64,000 nucleotides of DNA, from positions 1 to 64,000 of the forward strand of contig JAGPCK010000004.1 of NCBI GenBank assembly GCA_018058135.1, written 5' to 3'. Positions 468 to 5,536 of this stretch are shown here, piece by piece. Origin of the DNA: Bacteroidia bacterium. Its GTDB lineage: Bacteria; Bacteroidota; Bacteroidia; UKL13-3. The translations under genes were made by a program, and so were the position numbers. The notes beneath the pieces were generated by a model. It was not told the DNA's origin and made no database searches. It saw only the letters and a list, made by a program, of their open reading frames with translations. Within the stretch, counting starts at the first letter, position 1. Each line of letters starts with the position of its first letter.

Positions 468-851
468 TCACTCCTCATAAAACTCCCTCAGGGCACCAAA
501 GTACATACCCGTCCAGCCATCCTGAATATTTTGAAAATCTTCATCAGGAATATTGGTTTGGTGCAGCTCAACTGATGTTTGACCGTTATCTGTTTTATGC
601 AATTTAAGGGTAACAATGGATTGCTCCGGTCGGTCGCCAAAGTACCACTCCTGCACTATCTTTTTGCTTTCTTCAAACTCGAGGTTTTTACCGCAGATAT
701 TGCCGCCCCAAAGAGAAAACTCCGAACCCGGCTCGGTGCTCATTTCCGCTTCTTCTCCTGTCCACAAGTAAATGGTGAGTGGGTTGGTTAGTGCCAGATA
801 CACCTCTTCTGGTGGTGCGGGTATGGCAAAATAGCGTTTAAAATCTTTCAT
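468..851 (-). CDS. SRPBCC / AHSA1-like domain protein
   Basis: A 127-residue cytoplasmic protein spanning one START-like helix-grip domain of the AHSA1 type. It starts with the typical KRYFAIPAPPEEVYLALTNP strand and helix and has the GSEFSLWGG turn. The C-terminal helix begins DGWTGMYFGALREFYEE, the family's 'GW..ml..Lk.yle' ending. Members bind hydrophobic ligands or act as Hsp90 co-chaperone-like modules; the ligand is unknown here. The start lies 2 bases after the stop of the upstream regulator gene, so the two are co-transcribed and the regulator may control it. Confidence 0.8.
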   Translation of the reverse strand: MKDFKRYFAIPAPPEEVYLALTNPLTIYLWTGEEAEMSTEPGSEFSLWGGNICGKNLEFEESKKIVQEWYFGDRPEQSIVTLKLHKTDNGQTSVELHQTNIPDEDFQNIQDGWTGMYFGALREFYEE

Positions 852-853
852 AA

Positions 854-1849
854 TTACTCGTTGATGTACTGTATTAATTCATCCACTTTTTTGAACATGG
901 ATTTAAAAAACTGGTTGCGCAATTTCTCCGCCACACCGCTCAACATCGTTGATTTGGAAATGAGGTTATTCATCCACCGTTCATTTTGTTCATTAAAAAA
1001 CCGGTTAGTGGTGCGCATGCTGTTAAAAGAATTGTAGCTGATAAAACTGCTGATTTTATCATCGGCTTTAATGAGCACACAGTTGTTCCCAAACATCAGG
1101 TCGCTGAGGTAGAACGTATAATCCACAGCCGTCATGGTGCCTTCCGCAGTAAACTTTTTACCTGTCTCCACCTGACGTTGTACTTGCTTTAACATTTCCC
1201 TGAAATCTTCTATCACCAATAATGCATCTTCACGGGTTGTGAAGAATCCTGCATCCCAATAAAAGCGAATATGTTTGAGGTTACTCATAATGGTTTCATC
1301 GGTCCATATTTCGGTAGACGGAACACGGCTATAAGCAAGACCGGCCTGCTTTGCGGTTTCTAACAACGCTGCATCAATGTGGTTGAGGTGGTAATGTTTA
1401 TTTTGCAAGGAGGCCACATTAAGTATGGATTTCATCCAATACGTGAGCTTAAATGCCGAGAGGTGCGGATACGAAAAATGGTGAAAAACGGGCACGTCTT
1501 CCGCAGCAAATAAAATGCGTTTGTTTTCAAATTTTTGCAGTCCGTTTAACTCCTCGTACAAGCCTTTAAGGTAAGCATGAAAACTTTCCTCATCATCCAG
1601 TACAGGTGTAAACTTAAAAGTAACCACACCGGGCAGTTGGTCGTTAAGGGCTTCGAGCGGAACATCAAAATGGTGGCAAAGTTTCACTACCTCGTTAATG
1701 GTTAATTCAGTTTCGCCCCTTAGTCTGCGGTAAGTACTGTCCATGCTGATATTGAGTACCGAGGCTATCTCATTGGCCAGAGAAACATTGCCCGGCACCA
1801 ACTCTTTGAGAATATGGATAAACTGCTCCTGATGGGTTAAAGAAGGCAT
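854..1849 (-). CDS. HTH transcriptional regulator
   Basis: A 331-residue protein. Residues 20-60 form an XRE-like helix-turn-helix (ANEIASVLNISMDSTYRRLR, then ELTINEVVKLCHHF). The rest is an all-helical region without a motif I recognise; similar long HTH proteins are common in Bacteroidota but rarely characterised. The gene is first in a two-gene unit with the SRPBCC protein at 468. A 14-bp inverted repeat with a promoter-like element between its arms starts 3 bases upstream of the ATG, which suggests autoregulation by inference. No signal peptide is present. Confidence 0.75.
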   Translation of the reverse strand: MPSLTHQEQFIHILKELVPGNVSLANEIASVLNISMDSTYRRLRGETELTINEVVKLCHHFDVPLEALNDQLPGVVTFKFTPVLDDEESFHAYLKGLYEELNGLQKFENKRILFAAEDVPVFHHFSYPHLSAFKLTYWMKSILNVASLQNKHYHLNHIDAALLETAKQAGLAYSRVPSTEIWTDETIMSNLKHIRFYWDAGFFTTREDALLVIEDFREMLKQVQRQVETGKKFTAEGTMTAVDYTFYLSDLMFGNNCVLIKADDKISSFISYNSFNSMRTTNRFFNEQNERWMNNLISKSTMLSGVAEKLRNQFFKSMFKKVDELIQYINE

Positions 1850-1852
1850 TTT

Positions 1853-1907
1853 TATTTACGGTTTTGCATTTCAAAGCTATAAAATTATTTGCACAAAACC
1901 GTAAATA
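1853..1907. promoter_or_regulatory. Inverted-repeat operator candidate
   Basis: Perfect 14-bp arms at 1853-1866 and 1894-1907 (core ATTTACGGTTTTG and its complement), about 40 bp centre to centre, close to four helical turns. The repeat begins 3 bases before the start of the HTH regulator and encloses its candidate promoter. The geometry fits a dimeric regulator or looped repressor, probably the HTH protein itself. Confidence 0.6.
1872..1879 (-). promoter_or_regulatory. Promoter -7 element for the HTH regulator
   Basis: Minus-strand TAGCTTTG matches the Bacteroidota -7 consensus TAnnTTTG exactly, 22 bases upstream of the ATG at 1849. It lies between the arms of the inverted repeat. A TTG occurs upstream, but at only about 14 bases spacing, shorter than usual. 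Confidence 0.5.
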
Positions 1908-2065
1908 GTACTCCTGATGAATCTTTATACGCAAAAATGCAGCACAGATTAGTGATTGAACATTGAAATAAACGTATTACACGGCAACATCAACTTCTAC
2001 TGGCAGCATCCCGTTTTATTGCCCGAATGGAACACGCTTGCTTTGTACCATAAAAAACACCAACC

Positions 2066-3199
2066 ATGAATACAAAAAATCTTTTCCTCACCAGCCTGCT
2101 GATTTTTACATCAGCCGTAAAATTGATGGCAGCCGGACCTGAAAATCCGAGTATCGCCTTTATTGACATAGACACCCGCAACAGCAGGGTAAGCACTCCC
2201 TCCAATCCGGTTACGGCCATGACCCGCGTGGAGCTTGAAAAACTGAAGCGGTTTCAGTTGCTCGATAAATATGATTTGGAGTACATCACCTCCAAAGACT
2301 CCATTAAAATCAACAATTGTTATAGCCGTTTATGCCTCACTGAACTGGGCAAAAAATTGAAAGTAGAAAAAATGTTTACCGGCTCAGTGGAAGAAATGTC
2401 GGACCAGATTATTGTGACCTTTAAAATACTGGATGTACAAAACGGGCAGTTTGAAAAGGTACAGGTAAATGAATTCTTAAACATTCCTGCTGAAATAAAA
2501 AGCATGATTAAAGTAACCATGAACGACATGTTCGGTATACAGAACGAAGCCGATCTGGTATCGAAACTTACACGCAAAGATGACTACGACAATGCGGTGA
2601 ATAACCCGTATGAACTACGTTTACGCAGTGATGGCCCGCGAATGGGTTTCACCTACTTTACCGGAAGCGATGCCGCTGTACTTAAAGCACCTAGCAATGC
2701 AGGCGGCTTTAATGCACACCCGGTCATGTTTCAGTTTGGCTACCAGTTTGAGCGGCAATACCTCAATGAAGGAAATTTTCAGGCTCTGTTTGAATTTGTG
2801 CCCATGCTCACAGGTTTAGACCAAGGTTTGCTTATTCCCAGTTTCACCTTTATGAACGGACTGCGCAGCAACAAGAGCGGATGGGAATTTGCCTTTGGAC
2901 CAACGGTAGCGTTTGCTAAAAAAGCAGAAGGTTTCTATGATAGTAATAACAACTGGCACCTTAAAAATGACACTACCGAACAATTTTTACCACGTAATAT
3001 GGAAACACGTATGGATAGCAGAGGAGATGTTACCCTACATACTAATTTCGTATTTGCTTTTGGTAAAACATTTAAATCAGGTAAGTTGAATATTCCGGTA
3101 AACGGCTACATCATCCCCAGTAAAAATGGAGCCCGTGTTGGAGTATCCTTTGGATTTAATGCCAAAGAAAGGTACACGTTCAACGGCAAAGTAAAATAA
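2066..3199 (+). CDS. Secreted protein of unknown function, N-terminal CsgG-like fold
   Basis: 377 residues with a signal peptide (about 1-23, ending KLMAA). Residues 28-160 (SIAFIDIDTRN, then MTRVELEKLKRFQLLDKYDLEYI and LGKKLKVEKMFTGSVEEM) resemble the CsgG/DUF2380-type periplasmic domain that computes over oligomeric rings. Residues 190-377 are rich in alternating strands and look like a small outer-membrane or surface beta domain, ending YTFNGKVK. The specific function is unknown. It stands alone after a 216-base intergenic stretch and is followed 18 bases later by a small membrane protein. Confidence 0.55.
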   Translation: MNTKNLFLTSLLIFTSAVKLMAAGPENPSIAFIDIDTRNSRVSTPSNPVTAMTRVELEKLKRFQLLDKYDLEYITSKDSIKINNCYSRLCLTELGKKLKVEKMFTGSVEEMSDQIIVTFKILDVQNGQFEKVQVNEFLNIPAEIKSMIKVTMNDMFGIQNEADLVSKLTRKDDYDNAVNNPYELRLRSDGPRMGFTYFTGSDAAVLKAPSNAGGFNAHPVMFQFGYQFERQYLNEGNFQALFEFVPMLTGLDQGLLIPSFTFMNGLRSNKSGWEFAFGPTVAFAKKAEGFYDSNNNWHLKNDTTEQFLPRNMETRMDSRGDVTLHTNFVFAFGKTFKSGKLNIPVNGYIIPSKNGARVGVSFGFNAKERYTFNGKVK

Positions 3200-3217
3200 C
3201 TTTAATACAAAACGATT

Positions 3218-3553
3218 ATGAATTTATTCATCAACGTCACCCGAAACGTAAACCGTGGCATCAGTGTTTTTATCTCCTTGTTTTTACTTGTCATGATTTT
3301 TGGCGACCCCATAAAACCTAATTTAGAAGAAGCCGGAGCCATGTTGCTTTTCCCCGGTGGAGTTATAGCGGGCTTTCTGTGGGCATGGAAAAATGAGCGC
3401 ATCGGTAGCTTAATCTCTTTGGTAAGTCTGGTGCTCTTTTACGTATACATGTATGTCAGTCGGGAAGGTTTTCCGGGAGGCCCGTATTTTCTGCTCCTCT
3501 CCTTTCCTGCTTTAATTTTTCTAGTTTTATCCTTTGTCTCACCTCAATCTTAA
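3218..3553 (+). CDS. Small integral membrane protein
   Basis: 111 residues with four hydrophobic segments (about 14-32, 40-55, 64-82 and 88-106); almost the whole chain is membrane-embedded. The segments are linked by a WAWKNERIG loop. I do not recognise the family. It sits 18 bases after the secreted protein gene and 7 bases before the CarF-like desaturase, so the three may be one transcript. The Shine-Dalgarno signal is weak, as is common in this phylum. Confidence 0.55.
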   Translation: MNLFINVTRNVNRGISVFISLFLLVMIFGDPIKPNLEEAGAMLLFPGGVIAGFLWAWKNERIGSLISLVSLVLFYVYMYVSREGFPGGPYFLLLSFPALIFLVLSFVSPQS

Positions 3554-3560
3554 TGTTGCA

Positions 3561-4166
3561 ATGACCCACTATATTCAACTTATTTTCGAATGTGTACTTA
3601 CACTATTCGCTATAGATTTTGTATCCGGCTTTGTTCACTGGGCTGAGGATACATTCGGTACAGAAAAAACTCCCTTGTATGGCAAATGGATTGTTGTGCC
3701 TAATACCATTCACCACGAACAACCTGCTGCATTCACTCAAAAAAACTGGTGGCAAAGTTCATGGGATCTGGCCTTATGTTCAGCGCTTATTGCTTTGGCT
3801 GCTTGGTGGGGCAGTTGGCTCAGTTGGCACGTTTGGGTATTTTGTGTGCTGGGTGCCAATGCCAATCAATTACATAAATATACTCATGTATCAAGGGTTA
3901 AAATTCCGTTACCTGTTCGTTGGTTGCAAGACTTGCGGGTGGTTCAATCAGCAAAAGACCATGCGTTACACCACAGCGGAAAGAAAAACACGGCCTACTG
4001 TGTGATTACCCCTTACCTGAATCCTGTATTGGATAGTATAGGTTTTTGGAGATGTTTGGAAAAAATAATAGTCCCTTTTACAGGTGCACCTCGTAGAGAA
4101 GACCTGAACATAAAACCAATCACTTCAATAACTGATTCACCATCGGAACATCATCCGTTAGAATGA
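3561..4166 (+). CDS. CarF/PEDS1-type plasmanylethanolamine desaturase
   Basis: A 201-residue membrane protein of the lipid desaturase family (CarF, Kua, TMEM189/PEDS1), which makes the vinyl-ether bond of plasmalogens from alkyl-ether lipids using a di-iron centre. The family's eight histidines are all visible: H26 (FVHWAED), H51-H52 (HHEQP), H105 and H109 (HKYTH), H134, H137 and H138 (DHALHH). The ATG at 3561 begins just before the first membrane segment and just after the preceding stop; a TTG at 3534 would give a longer but less likely start. It converges with, and overlaps by 47 bases, a glycerophosphodiesterase gene. Confidence 0.85.
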   Translation: MTHYIQLIFECVLTLFAIDFVSGFVHWAEDTFGTEKTPLYGKWIVVPNTIHHEQPAAFTQKNWWQSSWDLALCSALIALAAWWGSWLSWHVWVFCVLGANANQLHKYTHVSRVKIPLPVRWLQDLRVVQSAKDHALHHSGKKNTAYCVITPYLNPVLDSIGFWRCLEKIIVPFTGAPRREDLNIKPITSITDSPSEHHPLE

Positions 4167-4974
4167 AGTCGGGCGATTTTTCAATGGCAGATTCAGCATC
4201 ACTTGTATTTACTACACCAAAGATGGACACCTTTAAGCCGGAAGCATGAGCCGCAGAAACACTTTCTTTTGTGCAGGAGTTATTCCCGGTCATAATACCG
4301 GTGTAGTTTCTGTTATTGGCTATAGAAAACCAATCAAACACGGAGCCATTAATCATTAATTGTACTTGATCATCAAGTGCACTCATCAAATCTAAATAAA
4401 GCTCAAAATTTGACTCCAAATAAACAAATTCAAAAAGATGAAATCTTTCAATTAGACTGTGCATACTGTTAACATACAAATTAATATAAAGCAAGTATTC
4501 ATCACTTGAACTGATATTGCAGGGCAGGTCAAGTTTATTATCCAACATGATAAACGGGATAAAATCAAGTGAAGAGCAATACTGGAAAAGTTCTTCTAAG
4601 GAAAGCAAATAGCTGTCGGAGTTTTTGTATTTACATGCCCGCAGTTCCTCTGCAGTATACTGGTAAATGCAACCCGATAAGTTGGTTTGTGTTTCGAGGT
4701 AATCATCATGATATAAAAACAGTACTCCGTCACGGCTCATTTGCACATCTACCTCCACACCTGATGCAGCATATAGTTCCAACGCTTTCTGTACAGAGGC
4801 CATACTGTTTTCAGGTAAGGGATTAGCTGCAGTTCTCGGCCCGCACCCTCTGTGCCCTATTACAGCAATCCTATCTCCGTTCAGGTTATTGATTTCCGGA
4901 GTCTCATCACGGCAGGCACTCATCAACCAAAAGGTTGAACAAAACAAAAGGAACTTGAGTGTTCTAAAAATCAT
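4120..4974 (-). CDS. Glycerophosphodiester phosphodiesterase, lipoprotein
   Basis: A 284-residue GDPD-family TIM barrel that hydrolyses glycerophosphodiesters to an alcohol and glycerol 3-phosphate. A lipobox (LMSAC) puts the lipid anchor on Cys21. Catalytic and metal residues are visible: H41-R42 (GHRG), E55 (PENS), E74 and D76 (VEVDV) and H89 (YHDD). The end, DFILTDDVPMVNQLL, is typical. It overlaps the upstream beta-barrel gene by 11 bases, so the two are co-transcribed. Its 3' end overlaps the convergent desaturase gene by 47 bases, which could allow antisense interference. Confidence 0.85.
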   Translation of the reverse strand: MIFRTLKFLLFCSTFWLMSACRDETPEINNLNGDRIAVIGHRGCGPRTAANPLPENSMASVQKALELYAASGVEVDVQMSRDGVLFLYHDDYLETQTNLSGCIYQYTAEELRACKYKNSDSYLLSLEELFQYCSSLDFIPFIMLDNKLDLPCNISSSDEYLLYINLYVNSMHSLIERFHLFEFVYLESNFELYLDLMSALDDQVQLMINGSVFDWFSIANNRNYTGIMTGNNSCTKESVSAAHASGLKVSIFGVVNTSDAESAIEKSPDFILTDDVPMVNQLLK

Positions 4975-5536
4975 ATCCTATCCACAACTTTACCTGTGCT
5001 CCATGTCCGTGCAATTTTAAATCTCCTGACGAGTAAAAATTGGTTTGTGTTTCAATGTATGTGCCGTACCCGAATGTGTTAGCAATGGTGAGTCGTTTGG
5101 TGCGCCACATCCAGCCGTAATTCAGGTAAACTTCATGCAATTGATACAAACCTTTCCTGTCGTCAACAGGCGAGTGCGTACCGTAAAGCAGGTTGCCGTA
5201 TGAAACGTCCATCACCATGCGGGCGTTTTTAATATTCAGCGGAAATAATTTTCTGAAACTGATTTGCCCCCCTGTTCCACCATAAGTCAGTTTGGCTACA
5301 TTGATTAAAGGTGCACGTAGAGCAACAGCCACTTCATATGTAGGTCGGCAATAAACATACCCTACACCCGTTAATATTCCGTTAAATGTGTATTGAGAAG
5401 TAAGTTCCACCCGGTGTTTCCAATTCTTTGCAGGGGAAGCAACCACAGTATCTGCGGAAGTTTCGCCTTTTAACACTTCTCCATATACATGGTGTAGTAA
5501 AAAAAGTAAAATGAGGGTGGTGAACCAATGTTTCAT
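4964..5536 (-). CDS. Predicted outer-membrane beta-barrel protein
   Basis: 190 residues with a signal peptide (MKHWFTTLILLFLLHHVYG), then alternating amphipathic strands (YTFNGILTGVGYVY, RMVMDVSYGNLLYG, LTIANTFGYGTY). It ends in an aromatic residue after AQKLW-type strands (final WIGYDF), as outer-membrane barrels do. I chose the ATG at 5536 because it gives a clean signal peptide; a TTG four codons upstream also exists. The family is not recognised. It overlaps the downstream glycerophosphodiesterase by 11 bases. Confidence 0.6.
   Translation of the reverse strand: MKHWFTTLILLFLLHHVYGEVLKGETSADTVVASPAKNWKHRVELTSQYTFNGILTGVGYVYCRPTYEVAVALRAPLINVAKLTYGGTGGQISFRKLFPLNIKNARMVMDVSYGNLLYGTHSPVDDRKGLYQLHEVYLNYGWMWRTKRLTIANTFGYGTYIETQTNFYSSGDLKLHGHGAQVKLWIGYDF

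What the first reader, a model, noticed from the sequence alone, without database searches (positions are those of the whole stretch)
3561..5536. Plasmalogen desaturase homologue convergent with a lipoprotein glycerophosphodiesterase
All eight family histidines are present in the CarF/PEDS1-like protein. The only neighbours are a membrane protein and a convergent GDPD lipoprotein with an outer-membrane-barrel partner. Plasmalogen synthesis is not a familiar trait of this phylum. The 47-base 3' overlap could link expression of lipid-making and lipid-cleaving genes.
Basis: partly seen in the sequence, partly recalled or inferred. Interest (0 to 1): 0.5.

Follow-up and report, generated by a model that had tools for sequence, protein, structure and literature searches.

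The report
Lipid desaturase related to plasmalogen enzyme
This gene makes a membrane lipid desaturase related to the enzyme that makes plasmalogens, but it lacks two residues important for that activity, the precursor genes looked for were not found, and the wider branch it belongs to is scattered over many bacterial groups and also occurs in phages.

Summary
The protein at 3561-4166 is a real PF10520 (Lipid_desat) membrane desaturase: all eight family histidines, the essential Asp, a confident model. The plasmalogen reading is not supported. The ninth CarF/PEDS1 histidine is Lys61, PEDS1 F118 is Asn48, and NCBI's CarF model scores 83 of the 500 bits required. In 83 distinct sequences of this branch (window included, nine phylum labels) the eight His and Asp are invariant, Asn48 holds in 79, the ninth His occurs in 6. 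No AGPS and no DUF2229 (PlsA-type) protein was found in 14 of 14 carrier genomes. The GDPD link looks incidental: a same-genus genome without the desaturase has PhoH, T9SS, barrel, GDPD and AHSA1 genes in unbroken order, and the 47-base overlap codes only a poorly modelled tail that the two closest relatives lack. What recurs beside the desaturase (6 of 14 carriers) is an envelope protein (2066-3199). Unexpectedly, relatives sit on 158 viral contigs and in an isolated Erythrobacter phage ("hypothetical protein"). Best reading: a third, mobile branch of the CarF/FAD4 family modifying a phospholipid chain near the head group; product unknown. No CarF or FAD4 sequence was at hand for a tree.

The parts
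3561..4166 (+). PF10520 lipid desaturase, 201 aa (ATG start; an in-frame TTG at 3534 is possible). His26, Asp30, His51/52, His105, His109, His134, His137/138; Lys61 in place of the ninth PEDS1 histidine; Asn48 in place of Phe118
4120..4166 (.). 47-base tail-to-tail overlap of the desaturase with GDPD; codes only residues 187-201 of the desaturase
2066..3199 (+). recurring upstream neighbour ('cl2'), 377 aa: signal-peptide-like helix, alpha/beta domain (weak TolB_N resemblance), then beta strands of barrel type; found in 44 of 58 family genomes
854..1849 (-). divergent helix-turn-helix regulator ('cl1'), 331 aa; BetR 21.1 bits, just under its cut-off of 21.6
3218..3553 (+). DUF7670 membrane protein, 111 aa, 7 bases before the desaturase ATG; no relative in the neighbourhoods of the 13 other family copies
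4120..4974 (-). GDPD protein, 284 aa, with a lipobox-like LMSAC by eye; convergent neighbour by rearrangement, not part of the unit
4964..5536 (-). 190-aa secreted protein upstream of GDPD, syntenic with GDPD in the same-genus genome (32% identity); not part of the unit
468..851 (-). AHSA1-family protein; in genome G002 it follows GDPD directly (ATGA overlap), in the window it is split off by the block 852-4119

Best explanation
The gene encodes a small di-iron membrane desaturase of a bacterial and phage branch of the PF10520 family that differs from the plasmalogen desaturases (CarF/PEDS1) in their signature residues. Eight histidines and one aspartate hold two irons (inferred from the family); with O2 and an electron donor the enzyme removes two hydrogens from a chain of a membrane lipid close to the head-group end, as FAD4 does at C3 of the sn-2 acyl chain of phosphatidylglycerol and PEDS1 does at C1' of the sn-1 ether chain. 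The substrate here is most likely an ordinary diacyl phospholipid (or another Bacteroidota acyl lipid) rather than an alkyl ether lipid. The gene has spread singly between distant bacteria and sits in phage genomes; in this genome it lies with cl1-cl2, and its contact with GDPD follows from where that block lies. Shown: family, residues, model, distribution, synteny. Inferred: irons, reaction near the head group, acyl substrate, spread by transfer.
For: PF10520 at 135.6 bits. Eight His and Asp30 in 83 of 83 distinct rows (window included) and in 80 of 80 viral rows, Cys147 likewise. Model pLDDT 91.1, pTM 0.82; two entries of the ceramide fatty-acid hydroxylase Scs7p have Z 6.9 and 6.6 over 153 and 146 residues, the next entry 2.7 (a middling Z). 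Ninth PEDS1 histidine absent: Lys61, with no His between 53 and 89; His at that column in 6 of 83 and 2 of 80. F118 is Asn in 79 of 83 and 80 of 80. The window's genome and each of 13 other carriers have a single FAD-oxidase_C protein; the window's is closest to lactate dehydrogenase LctD and glycolate oxidase, and the 13 are 66-81% identical to it over the part present (three are cut by contig ends). DUF2229 in 0 of 14 (it rings in 4 of 14 controls). Patchy spread: 14 of 97 genomes near the window, all in its own family; 3 of 395 in the phylum; 5 of 398 in Pseudomonadota, the centre genome, already a known carrier, included; 80 kept loci of 81 relatives with nine phylum labels; 158 relatives on viral contigs. 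GDPD-AHSA1 contiguous in same-genus G002, which lacks the desaturase.
Against: No CarF, PEDS1 or FAD4 sequence could be fetched, so no tree with them was made; the case against PEDS1 rests on signature residues, a curated score cut-off and gene content. Mouse H131A keeps about 7% and F118A about 6% activity (PMC8960569), so such changes lower but do not abolish plasmalogen formation, and compensation is possible. The residue counts come from searches whose patterns favoured this branch. The window's genome is only 84% complete, though 11 of the 14 carriers are at least 90% complete. It does have a PcrB/GGGP-synthase homologue, so an isoprenoid ether lipid is conceivable. I had no sequence or model of myxobacterial ElbD, the main ether-lipid gene there; the PF07993 search was uninformative, as it hits all 14 carriers and all 14 controls. 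The head-group-end position of the reaction is an analogy.
Confidence: 0.62

Rival explanations
1. It is a true plasmanyl-lipid (vinyl-ether) desaturase and the organism makes plasmalogens aerobically, as first proposed.
For: Eight histidines and Asp30 kept; for each of 71 members scanned the CarF model is the only NCBIfam match at E <= 0.001, best E 1.9e-27.
Against: 83.4 bits against a cut-off of 500; Lys61 and Asn48 in place of H131 and F118; no AGPS and no DUF2229 protein found in 14 of 14 carriers. The review PMC9131029 (passages) says that homologues without the ninth His, from plants and Alphaproteobacteria, did not replace CarF.
Confidence: 0.1
2. It is a lipid chain hydroxylase rather than a desaturase, working like Scs7p/FA2H at C2 of an amide-linked (sphingolipid or sulfonolipid) fatty acid.
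For: Weak FA_hydroxylase match (24.3 bits, E 4.4e-05); best solved-structure match is Scs7p; sphingolipids and sulfonolipids are made by members of the Bacteroidota (PMC10191378, passages).
Against: The FA_hydroxylase score is under its cut-off of 31 while the PF10520 score is five times its own cut-off; carriers include Planctomycetota, Burkholderiales and a phage of Erythrobacter, not all known for sphingolipids (recalled).
Confidence: 0.13
3. The desaturase and the convergent GDPD form a lipid-making/lipid-cleaving pair whose expression is coupled by the 47-base overlap.
For: The overlap is real.
Against: In G002 GDPD runs into AHSA1 with an ATGA overlap and no desaturase; relatives of this GDPD at E <= 1e-10 are in 3 of 58 family genomes, and among the 14 carriers only in the window's; the overlap covers a tail missing in the two closest relatives.
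Confidence: 0.03
4. The desaturase works together with cl2 (2066-3199) and the divergent regulator cl1 as an envelope-stress unit.
For: Desaturase 3' of cl2 and co-directional in 6 of 14 carriers, counting the window (DUF7670 between them) and G032 (cl2 fragment at a contig end); two desaturase lineages only about a third identical stand in that place.
Against: cl2 occurs in 11 of 14 carriers and 33 of 44 non-carriers, Fisher p = 1; three of the window desaturase's closest relatives (G020, G009, G011) live in genomes in which no cl2 was found; in non-carriers clpB or various other genes follow cl2, which fits an insertion-prone site as well.
Confidence: 0.2

Closest known systems
CarF (Myxococcus xanthus) / PEDS1-TMEM189 (animals), plasmanylethanolamine desaturase
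   Same: Pfam PF10520; eight histidines with the same spacing inside the motifs; essential aspartate
   Different: Ninth histidine is Lys61; F118 is Asn48; 83 of 500 bits on the NCBIfam equivalog; 201 aa against a 269-position model, matched over positions 58-244; no AGPS found in the genome
FAD4, plant phosphatidylglycerol delta-3-trans desaturase
   Same: Pfam PF10520 with the eight histidines; also lacks the ninth histidine (PMC9131029: usually Arg in plants)
   Different: F118 is conserved in FAD4 (PMC8960569) but is Asn here; bacterial and phage, not chloroplast; substrate untested
Alphaproteobacterial CarF homologues (e.g. Bradyrhizobium) that do not complement carF
   Same: Bacterial homologues without the ninth histidine (PMC9131029, passages)
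   Different: The Bradyrhizobium copy was not compared by sequence here; relation to this branch unknown
Scs7p / FA2H fatty-acid 2-hydroxylase (PF04116)
   Same: Similar overall fold in the model (Z 6.9 over 153 residues)
   Different: Under the PF04116 cut-off; 10% identity
Cyanophage-encoded lipid desaturases (Roitman et al. 2018; title seen only in reference lists)
   Same: Phage-borne lipid desaturases
   Different: Recalled to be of the ordinary acyl-lipid desaturase family (PF00487), not PF10520

Membership tests
PF10520 Lipid_desat | Pfam gathering score | tested here: met
   135.6 bits against 26.4
PF10520 Lipid_desat | eight essential histidines with family spacing | tested here: met
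   His 26/51/52/105/109/134/137/138 against mouse positions in PMC8960569; 83 of 83 rows and 80 of 80 viral rows
PF10520 Lipid_desat | essential aspartate (mouse D100) | tested here: met
   Asp30, four residues after His26 as in mouse; invariant
CarF/PEDS1 plasmanylethanolamine desaturase | ninth histidine (mouse H131, CarF H113) | tested here: not met
   Lys61; no His between residues 53 and 89; His in 6 of 83 rows
CarF/PEDS1 plasmanylethanolamine desaturase | Phe118, 6% activity left when mutated | tested here: not met
   Asn48, mapped by position because the H96-H121 spacing is 25 in both
CarF/PEDS1 plasmanylethanolamine desaturase | NCBIfam NF045946 equivalog cut-off | tested here: not met
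   83.4 against 500 bits
CarF/PEDS1 plasmanylethanolamine desaturase | alkyl-ether lipid supply (AGPS) in the genome | tested here: not met
   one FAD-oxidase_C protein per genome, of LctD/GlcD type, in 14 of 14 carriers; own genome 84% complete, 11 of 14 at least 90%
CarF/PEDS1 plasmanylethanolamine desaturase | alkyl-ether lipid supply by ElbD | tested here: inconclusive
   PF07993 hits all 14 carriers and all 14 controls; no ElbD sequence or model was used
CarF/PEDS1 plasmanylethanolamine desaturase | groups with CarF/PEDS1 in a tree | not tested
   no CarF, PEDS1 or FAD4 sequence was reachable with the tools
CarF/PEDS1 plasmanylethanolamine desaturase | makes vinyl-ether lipids | not testable with these tools
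   needs lipid analysis
FAD4 | residues totally conserved in FAD4 and PEDS1, F118 among them | tested here: not met
   Asn48; apart from D100 and F118 the 20 residues were not tested one by one
FAD4 | trans-3 double bond in phosphatidylglycerol | not testable with these tools
   needs lipid analysis
FA_hydroxylase PF04116 | Pfam gathering score | tested here: not met
   24.3 bits against 31
GDPD PF03009 (the neighbour) | Pfam gathering score | tested here: met
   74.2 against 23.6

The most novel reading that the evidence does not exclude
PF10520 has a third enzymatic branch, marked by Asn at the F118 position and a free ninth-histidine position, that makes a lipid not yet described and is shared between many bacterial phyla and large tailed phages, which use it to remodel host membrane lipids during infection.
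Probability: 0.45. Interest if true: 0.72.

Novelty: new variant of a known kind. Interest (0 to 1): 0.46.

Why it matters
Annotation by similarity could name such proteins plasmanylethanolamine desaturase and so predict plasmalogens in bacteria in which no known way to the precursor was found. If the branch makes another product, it offers small natural comparison enzymes for what sets PEDS1 apart from FAD4. The phage copies would be a lipid-modifying auxiliary gene without a PHROG match (3 viral copies tried), in a phage whose published description contains neither 'desaturase' nor 'lipid'.

Tried and rejected
GDPD coupling: rejected by synteny. Foreign base composition: GC of the desaturase is 0.421, within the 0.394-0.453 of its neighbours, so no signal. 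Plasmid carriage: no match at E <= 1e-5 in 72,556 plasmid records. A first viral scan with the window protein alone found nothing; the scan with the 71-member alignment found 158. Foldseek against the PDB gave nothing at E <= 0.001; absence there means little. PF07993 as a test for a fatty-acyl reductase: uninformative. PHROGs scans of viral neighbours: of 16 neighbour proteins tried, 4 had a named function (terminase large subunit, head maturation protease, protease, DNA ligase), 1 a weak unknown-function hit, 11 none. Operon partner across phyla: no biosynthetic partner seen; most blastp clusters of neighbours unite few or close loci, except a regulator that looks LysR-like by eye, near the gene in 9 loci (7 titled Verrucomicrobiota or Akkermansia, 2 Proteobacteria).

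Rows dropped: L067 and L071 (too short) before the residue counts; L129 (same gene as L040) and L079 (contig-cut) before the count of 83; L129, L079 and L048 from the first tree; 13 rows, these three among them, from the second tree as near copies or long branches, and the 80 viral rows were reduced to 18 representatives plus two phage records. Selection bias: the search patterns asked for HW[WAF]ED or C[IV][ILM]T[NP]YLNP, and HW[AWF]ED, so the residue counts describe this branch, not all of PF10520. That PlsA carries DUF2229 and AGPS carries FAD-oxidase_C is recalled, though AGPS structures did match the own PF02913 protein in part.
Full report
What is there. The ORF 3561-4166 (+) codes a 201-aa protein. 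Pfam finds Lipid_desat PF10520 with 135.6 bits (cut-off 26.4) and FA_hydroxylase under its cut-off. The convergent ORF 4120-4974 (-) is a GDPD protein (74.2 bits), with LMSAC as a likely lipobox by eye, and 4964-5536 (-) is a secreted-looking 190-aa protein without a Pfam match. The 47-base overlap is exact.

Residues. PMC8960569 (parts 1-3 of 4 of the text read) lists the eight essential histidines of mouse PEDS1 (96, 121, 122, 187, 191, 215, 218, 219), the aspartate D100, F118 (F118A leaves 5.9%) and H131 (H131A leaves 7.4%). The window protein has histidines at 26, 51, 52, 105, 109, 134, 137, 138 and Asp30. The distance between the first two motifs is 25 in both, so F118 maps by position to 48, which is Asn. 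H131 maps to 61, which is Lys, and no histidine lies between 53 and 89. The review PMC9131029 (passages) says that the ninth histidine is essential in CarF, is found in metazoa, myxobacteria and Leptospira, and is absent in plants and Alphaproteobacteria, whose tested homologues did not replace CarF. On the NCBIfam equivalog for CarF the protein scores 83.4 against 500.

Relatives. The own genome (3.02 Mb, 127 contigs, 84% complete) has one copy. Of 97 genomes near the window, itself included, 14 carry one, all in its own family; none of the 39 genomes from 39 other families does. In the phylum it is 3 of 395, own included, one of them below cut-off and with a stop; in Pseudomonadota 5 of 398, the centre genome, chosen because it carries one, included. 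A scan of named genomes gave 81 relatives, 80 kept, titled Bacteroidota, Planctomycetota, Verrucomicrobiota, Burkholderiales, Alphaproteobacteria, Thiotrichaceae, Acidobacteria, Omnitrophota, Chlamydiota, Cyanobacteria and Nomurabacteria. The maximum-likelihood tree of 82 rows puts the window with three other Bacteroidota copies (96/88), inside a set of 12 that also holds Planctomycetota copies (90/100); the Bacteroidota label needs 5 changes, at least 3 forced by starred branches. This suggests transfer, but bin errors and paralogues were not excluded. Over 83 distinct rows, window included, the eight His, Asp30 and Cys147 are invariant; the F118 column is Asn in 79; the H131 column is His in 6. 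The search patterns favoured this branch, so these numbers describe it and not the whole family.

Ether-lipid supply. PF02913, the C-terminal domain of AGPS and of GlcD-type oxidases, has one match in the own genome and one in each of 13 other carriers. The own protein is nearest to lactate dehydrogenase LctD and glycolate oxidase in the PDB and matches AGPS over about half its length; the 13 others are 66-81% identical to it over the part present, three being cut by contig ends. DUF2229 (recalled as a part of the anaerobic plasmalogen synthase) is in 0 of 14, and in 4 of 14 control genomes. PF07993 was uninformative. A PcrB/GGGP-synthase homologue is present in the own genome, so isoprenoid ether lipids cannot be excluded.

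Neighbours. Six of 14 carriers have the desaturase downstream of the protein I call cl2 (window 2066-3199), in the window with DUF7670 between them; in five of the six, the window included, the divergent regulator cl1 is in view, while G032 shows only a cl2 fragment at a contig end. cl2 is modelled as a signal helix, an alpha/beta domain and barrel-like strands (pLDDT 80.5 but pTM only 0.47). It is present in 44 of 58 family genomes, in 11 of 14 carriers and 33 of 44 non-carriers, so presence does not go together; only place does. In other genomes of the family cl2 is followed by clpB, directly or after other genes; two desaturase lineages, about a third identical, stand directly 3' of cl2, though in the window no clpB follows. 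That could be a functional unit or an insertion-prone site.

The GDPD adjacency. In G002, same genus and without the desaturase, PhoH, T9SS protein, barrel protein (32% identity), GDPD (43%) and AHSA1 lie in the window's order, with GDPD and AHSA1 sharing ATGA, and cl1-cl2 lie on another contig. In the window the block 852-4119 (cl1, cl2, DUF7670, desaturase) stands between AHSA1 and GDPD. Which arrangement is older was not settled. Relatives of this GDPD at E <= 1e-10 occur in 3 of 58 family genomes, and in no carrier but the window's. The overlap codes the last 15 residues of the desaturase, where the model is poor (61-65) and the two closest relatives have stopped.

Fold. The model with 71 sequences has pLDDT 91.1 and pTM 0.82. 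VIA-align gives two entries of Scs7p at Z 6.9 and 6.6, then 2.7; such Z alone is middling. Foldseek against the PDB has nothing at E <= 0.001. Among viral models two reach E <= 0.001, one a Harvfovirus lipid-desaturase-domain protein (E 4.2e-06).

Phages. The scan of IMG/VR with the 71-member alignment found 158 relatives; 80 were kept, five of them on contigs of 145-187 kb. All 80 have the eight His, Asp, Cys and Asn48; 2 have His at 61. Seven desaturases from viral sources were put to Pfam and all 7 hit PF10520 over its cut-off; three of them, and the window's, were put to PHROGs and none matched. On L237 the desaturase overlaps a terminase large-subunit gene and L267 holds a head maturation protease. 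Among 50,697 phage records two match, the same two with three different queries: Erythrobacter phage vB_EliS-L02, where it is UIS25202.1 'hypothetical protein' between phoH and the portal gene, and a 595-kb uncultured phage without annotation. The paper on vB_EliS-L02 (PMC9127768, term search and passages) holds neither 'desaturase' nor 'lipid' in its main text. In the quick tree of 92 rows the viral copies form one group of 14, a pair, and four scattered rows on mostly long branches; none falls in the window's own starred set of 12 rows. So the branch is shared with phages, but nothing shows that this copy came by phage. Most IMG/VR pieces were not checked for phage hallmarks, and 11 of 16 neighbour proteins tried had no PHROG.

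In print. The ten searches (CarF/PEDS1/plasmalogen; plasmanylethanolamine desaturase; plasmalogen/Bacteroidetes/desaturase; TMEM189/Planctomycetes; FAD4/bacterial homologs; phage/plasmanylethanolamine desaturase; vB_EliS-L02; TMEM189/virus/auxiliary; PF10520; a mixed set) listed no paper whose title or abstract start describes PF10520 enzymes in phages or in aerobic Bacteroidota. Several listings were capped (for example 15 of 4,681, 12 of 1,001), and subscription journals are mostly not held, so this is no proof of absence. PMC9131029 states that true CarF homologues beyond myxobacteria were reported only in Leptospira.

Verdict. Real gene, correct superfamily, probably wrong product name as far as residues and gene content can tell, and an incidental neighbour. 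Most likely mechanism: a di-iron desaturase acting near the head-group end of a membrane-lipid acyl chain. That position is an analogy to FAD4, PEDS1 and Scs7p and needs lipid analysis. The wider point of interest is the branch that spans phyla and phages.

Noticed in passing
L275:2337-2873 (OL955261.1): Isolated Erythrobacter phage vB_EliS-L02 carries a PF10520 lipid desaturase (UIS25202.1, annotated hypothetical) between phoH and the portal gene.
   Followed up: partly
L195-L274 (IMG/VR): 158 relatives of the desaturase on viral contigs (80 kept), five of the kept ones on contigs of 145-187 kb; three viral copies tried had no PHROG match.
   Followed up: partly
L245:4992-6376: Desaturase on a viral contig directly followed by a patatin-like phospholipase (PF01734, 29.8 bits against 27.7) on the same strand.
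   Followed up: no
L237:5004-7555: Desaturase on a viral contig overlaps the start of the terminase large-subunit gene.
   Followed up: no
window 2066-3199 and relatives L175-L193: Envelope protein common in the family (weak TolB_N resemblance plus barrel-like strands), often with a divergent regulator; the place 3' of it is variable and holds the desaturase in two separate lineages.
   Followed up: partly
G000:C88:68607-69269 (L112): PcrB/GGGP-synthase homologue (141.5 bits): a possible source of isoprenoid ether lipids in this Bacteroidota genome.
   Followed up: no
window 852-4119 against L194: A 3.3-kb block parts GDPD from AHSA1, which overlap by ATGA in the same-genus genome G002.
   Followed up: yes
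L043:752-1633 and eight more loci of cluster 2: A regulator that looks LysR-like by eye lies near the desaturase in 9 loci, mostly Verrucomicrobiota.
   Followed up: no
L105:2510-5200: Flavobacteriales contig with two ordinary-looking fatty acid desaturases (by eye) directly before a PF10520 gene.
   Followed up: no
window 3218-3553: DUF7670 membrane protein placed just before the desaturase; no relative beside the 13 other family copies.
   Followed up: no
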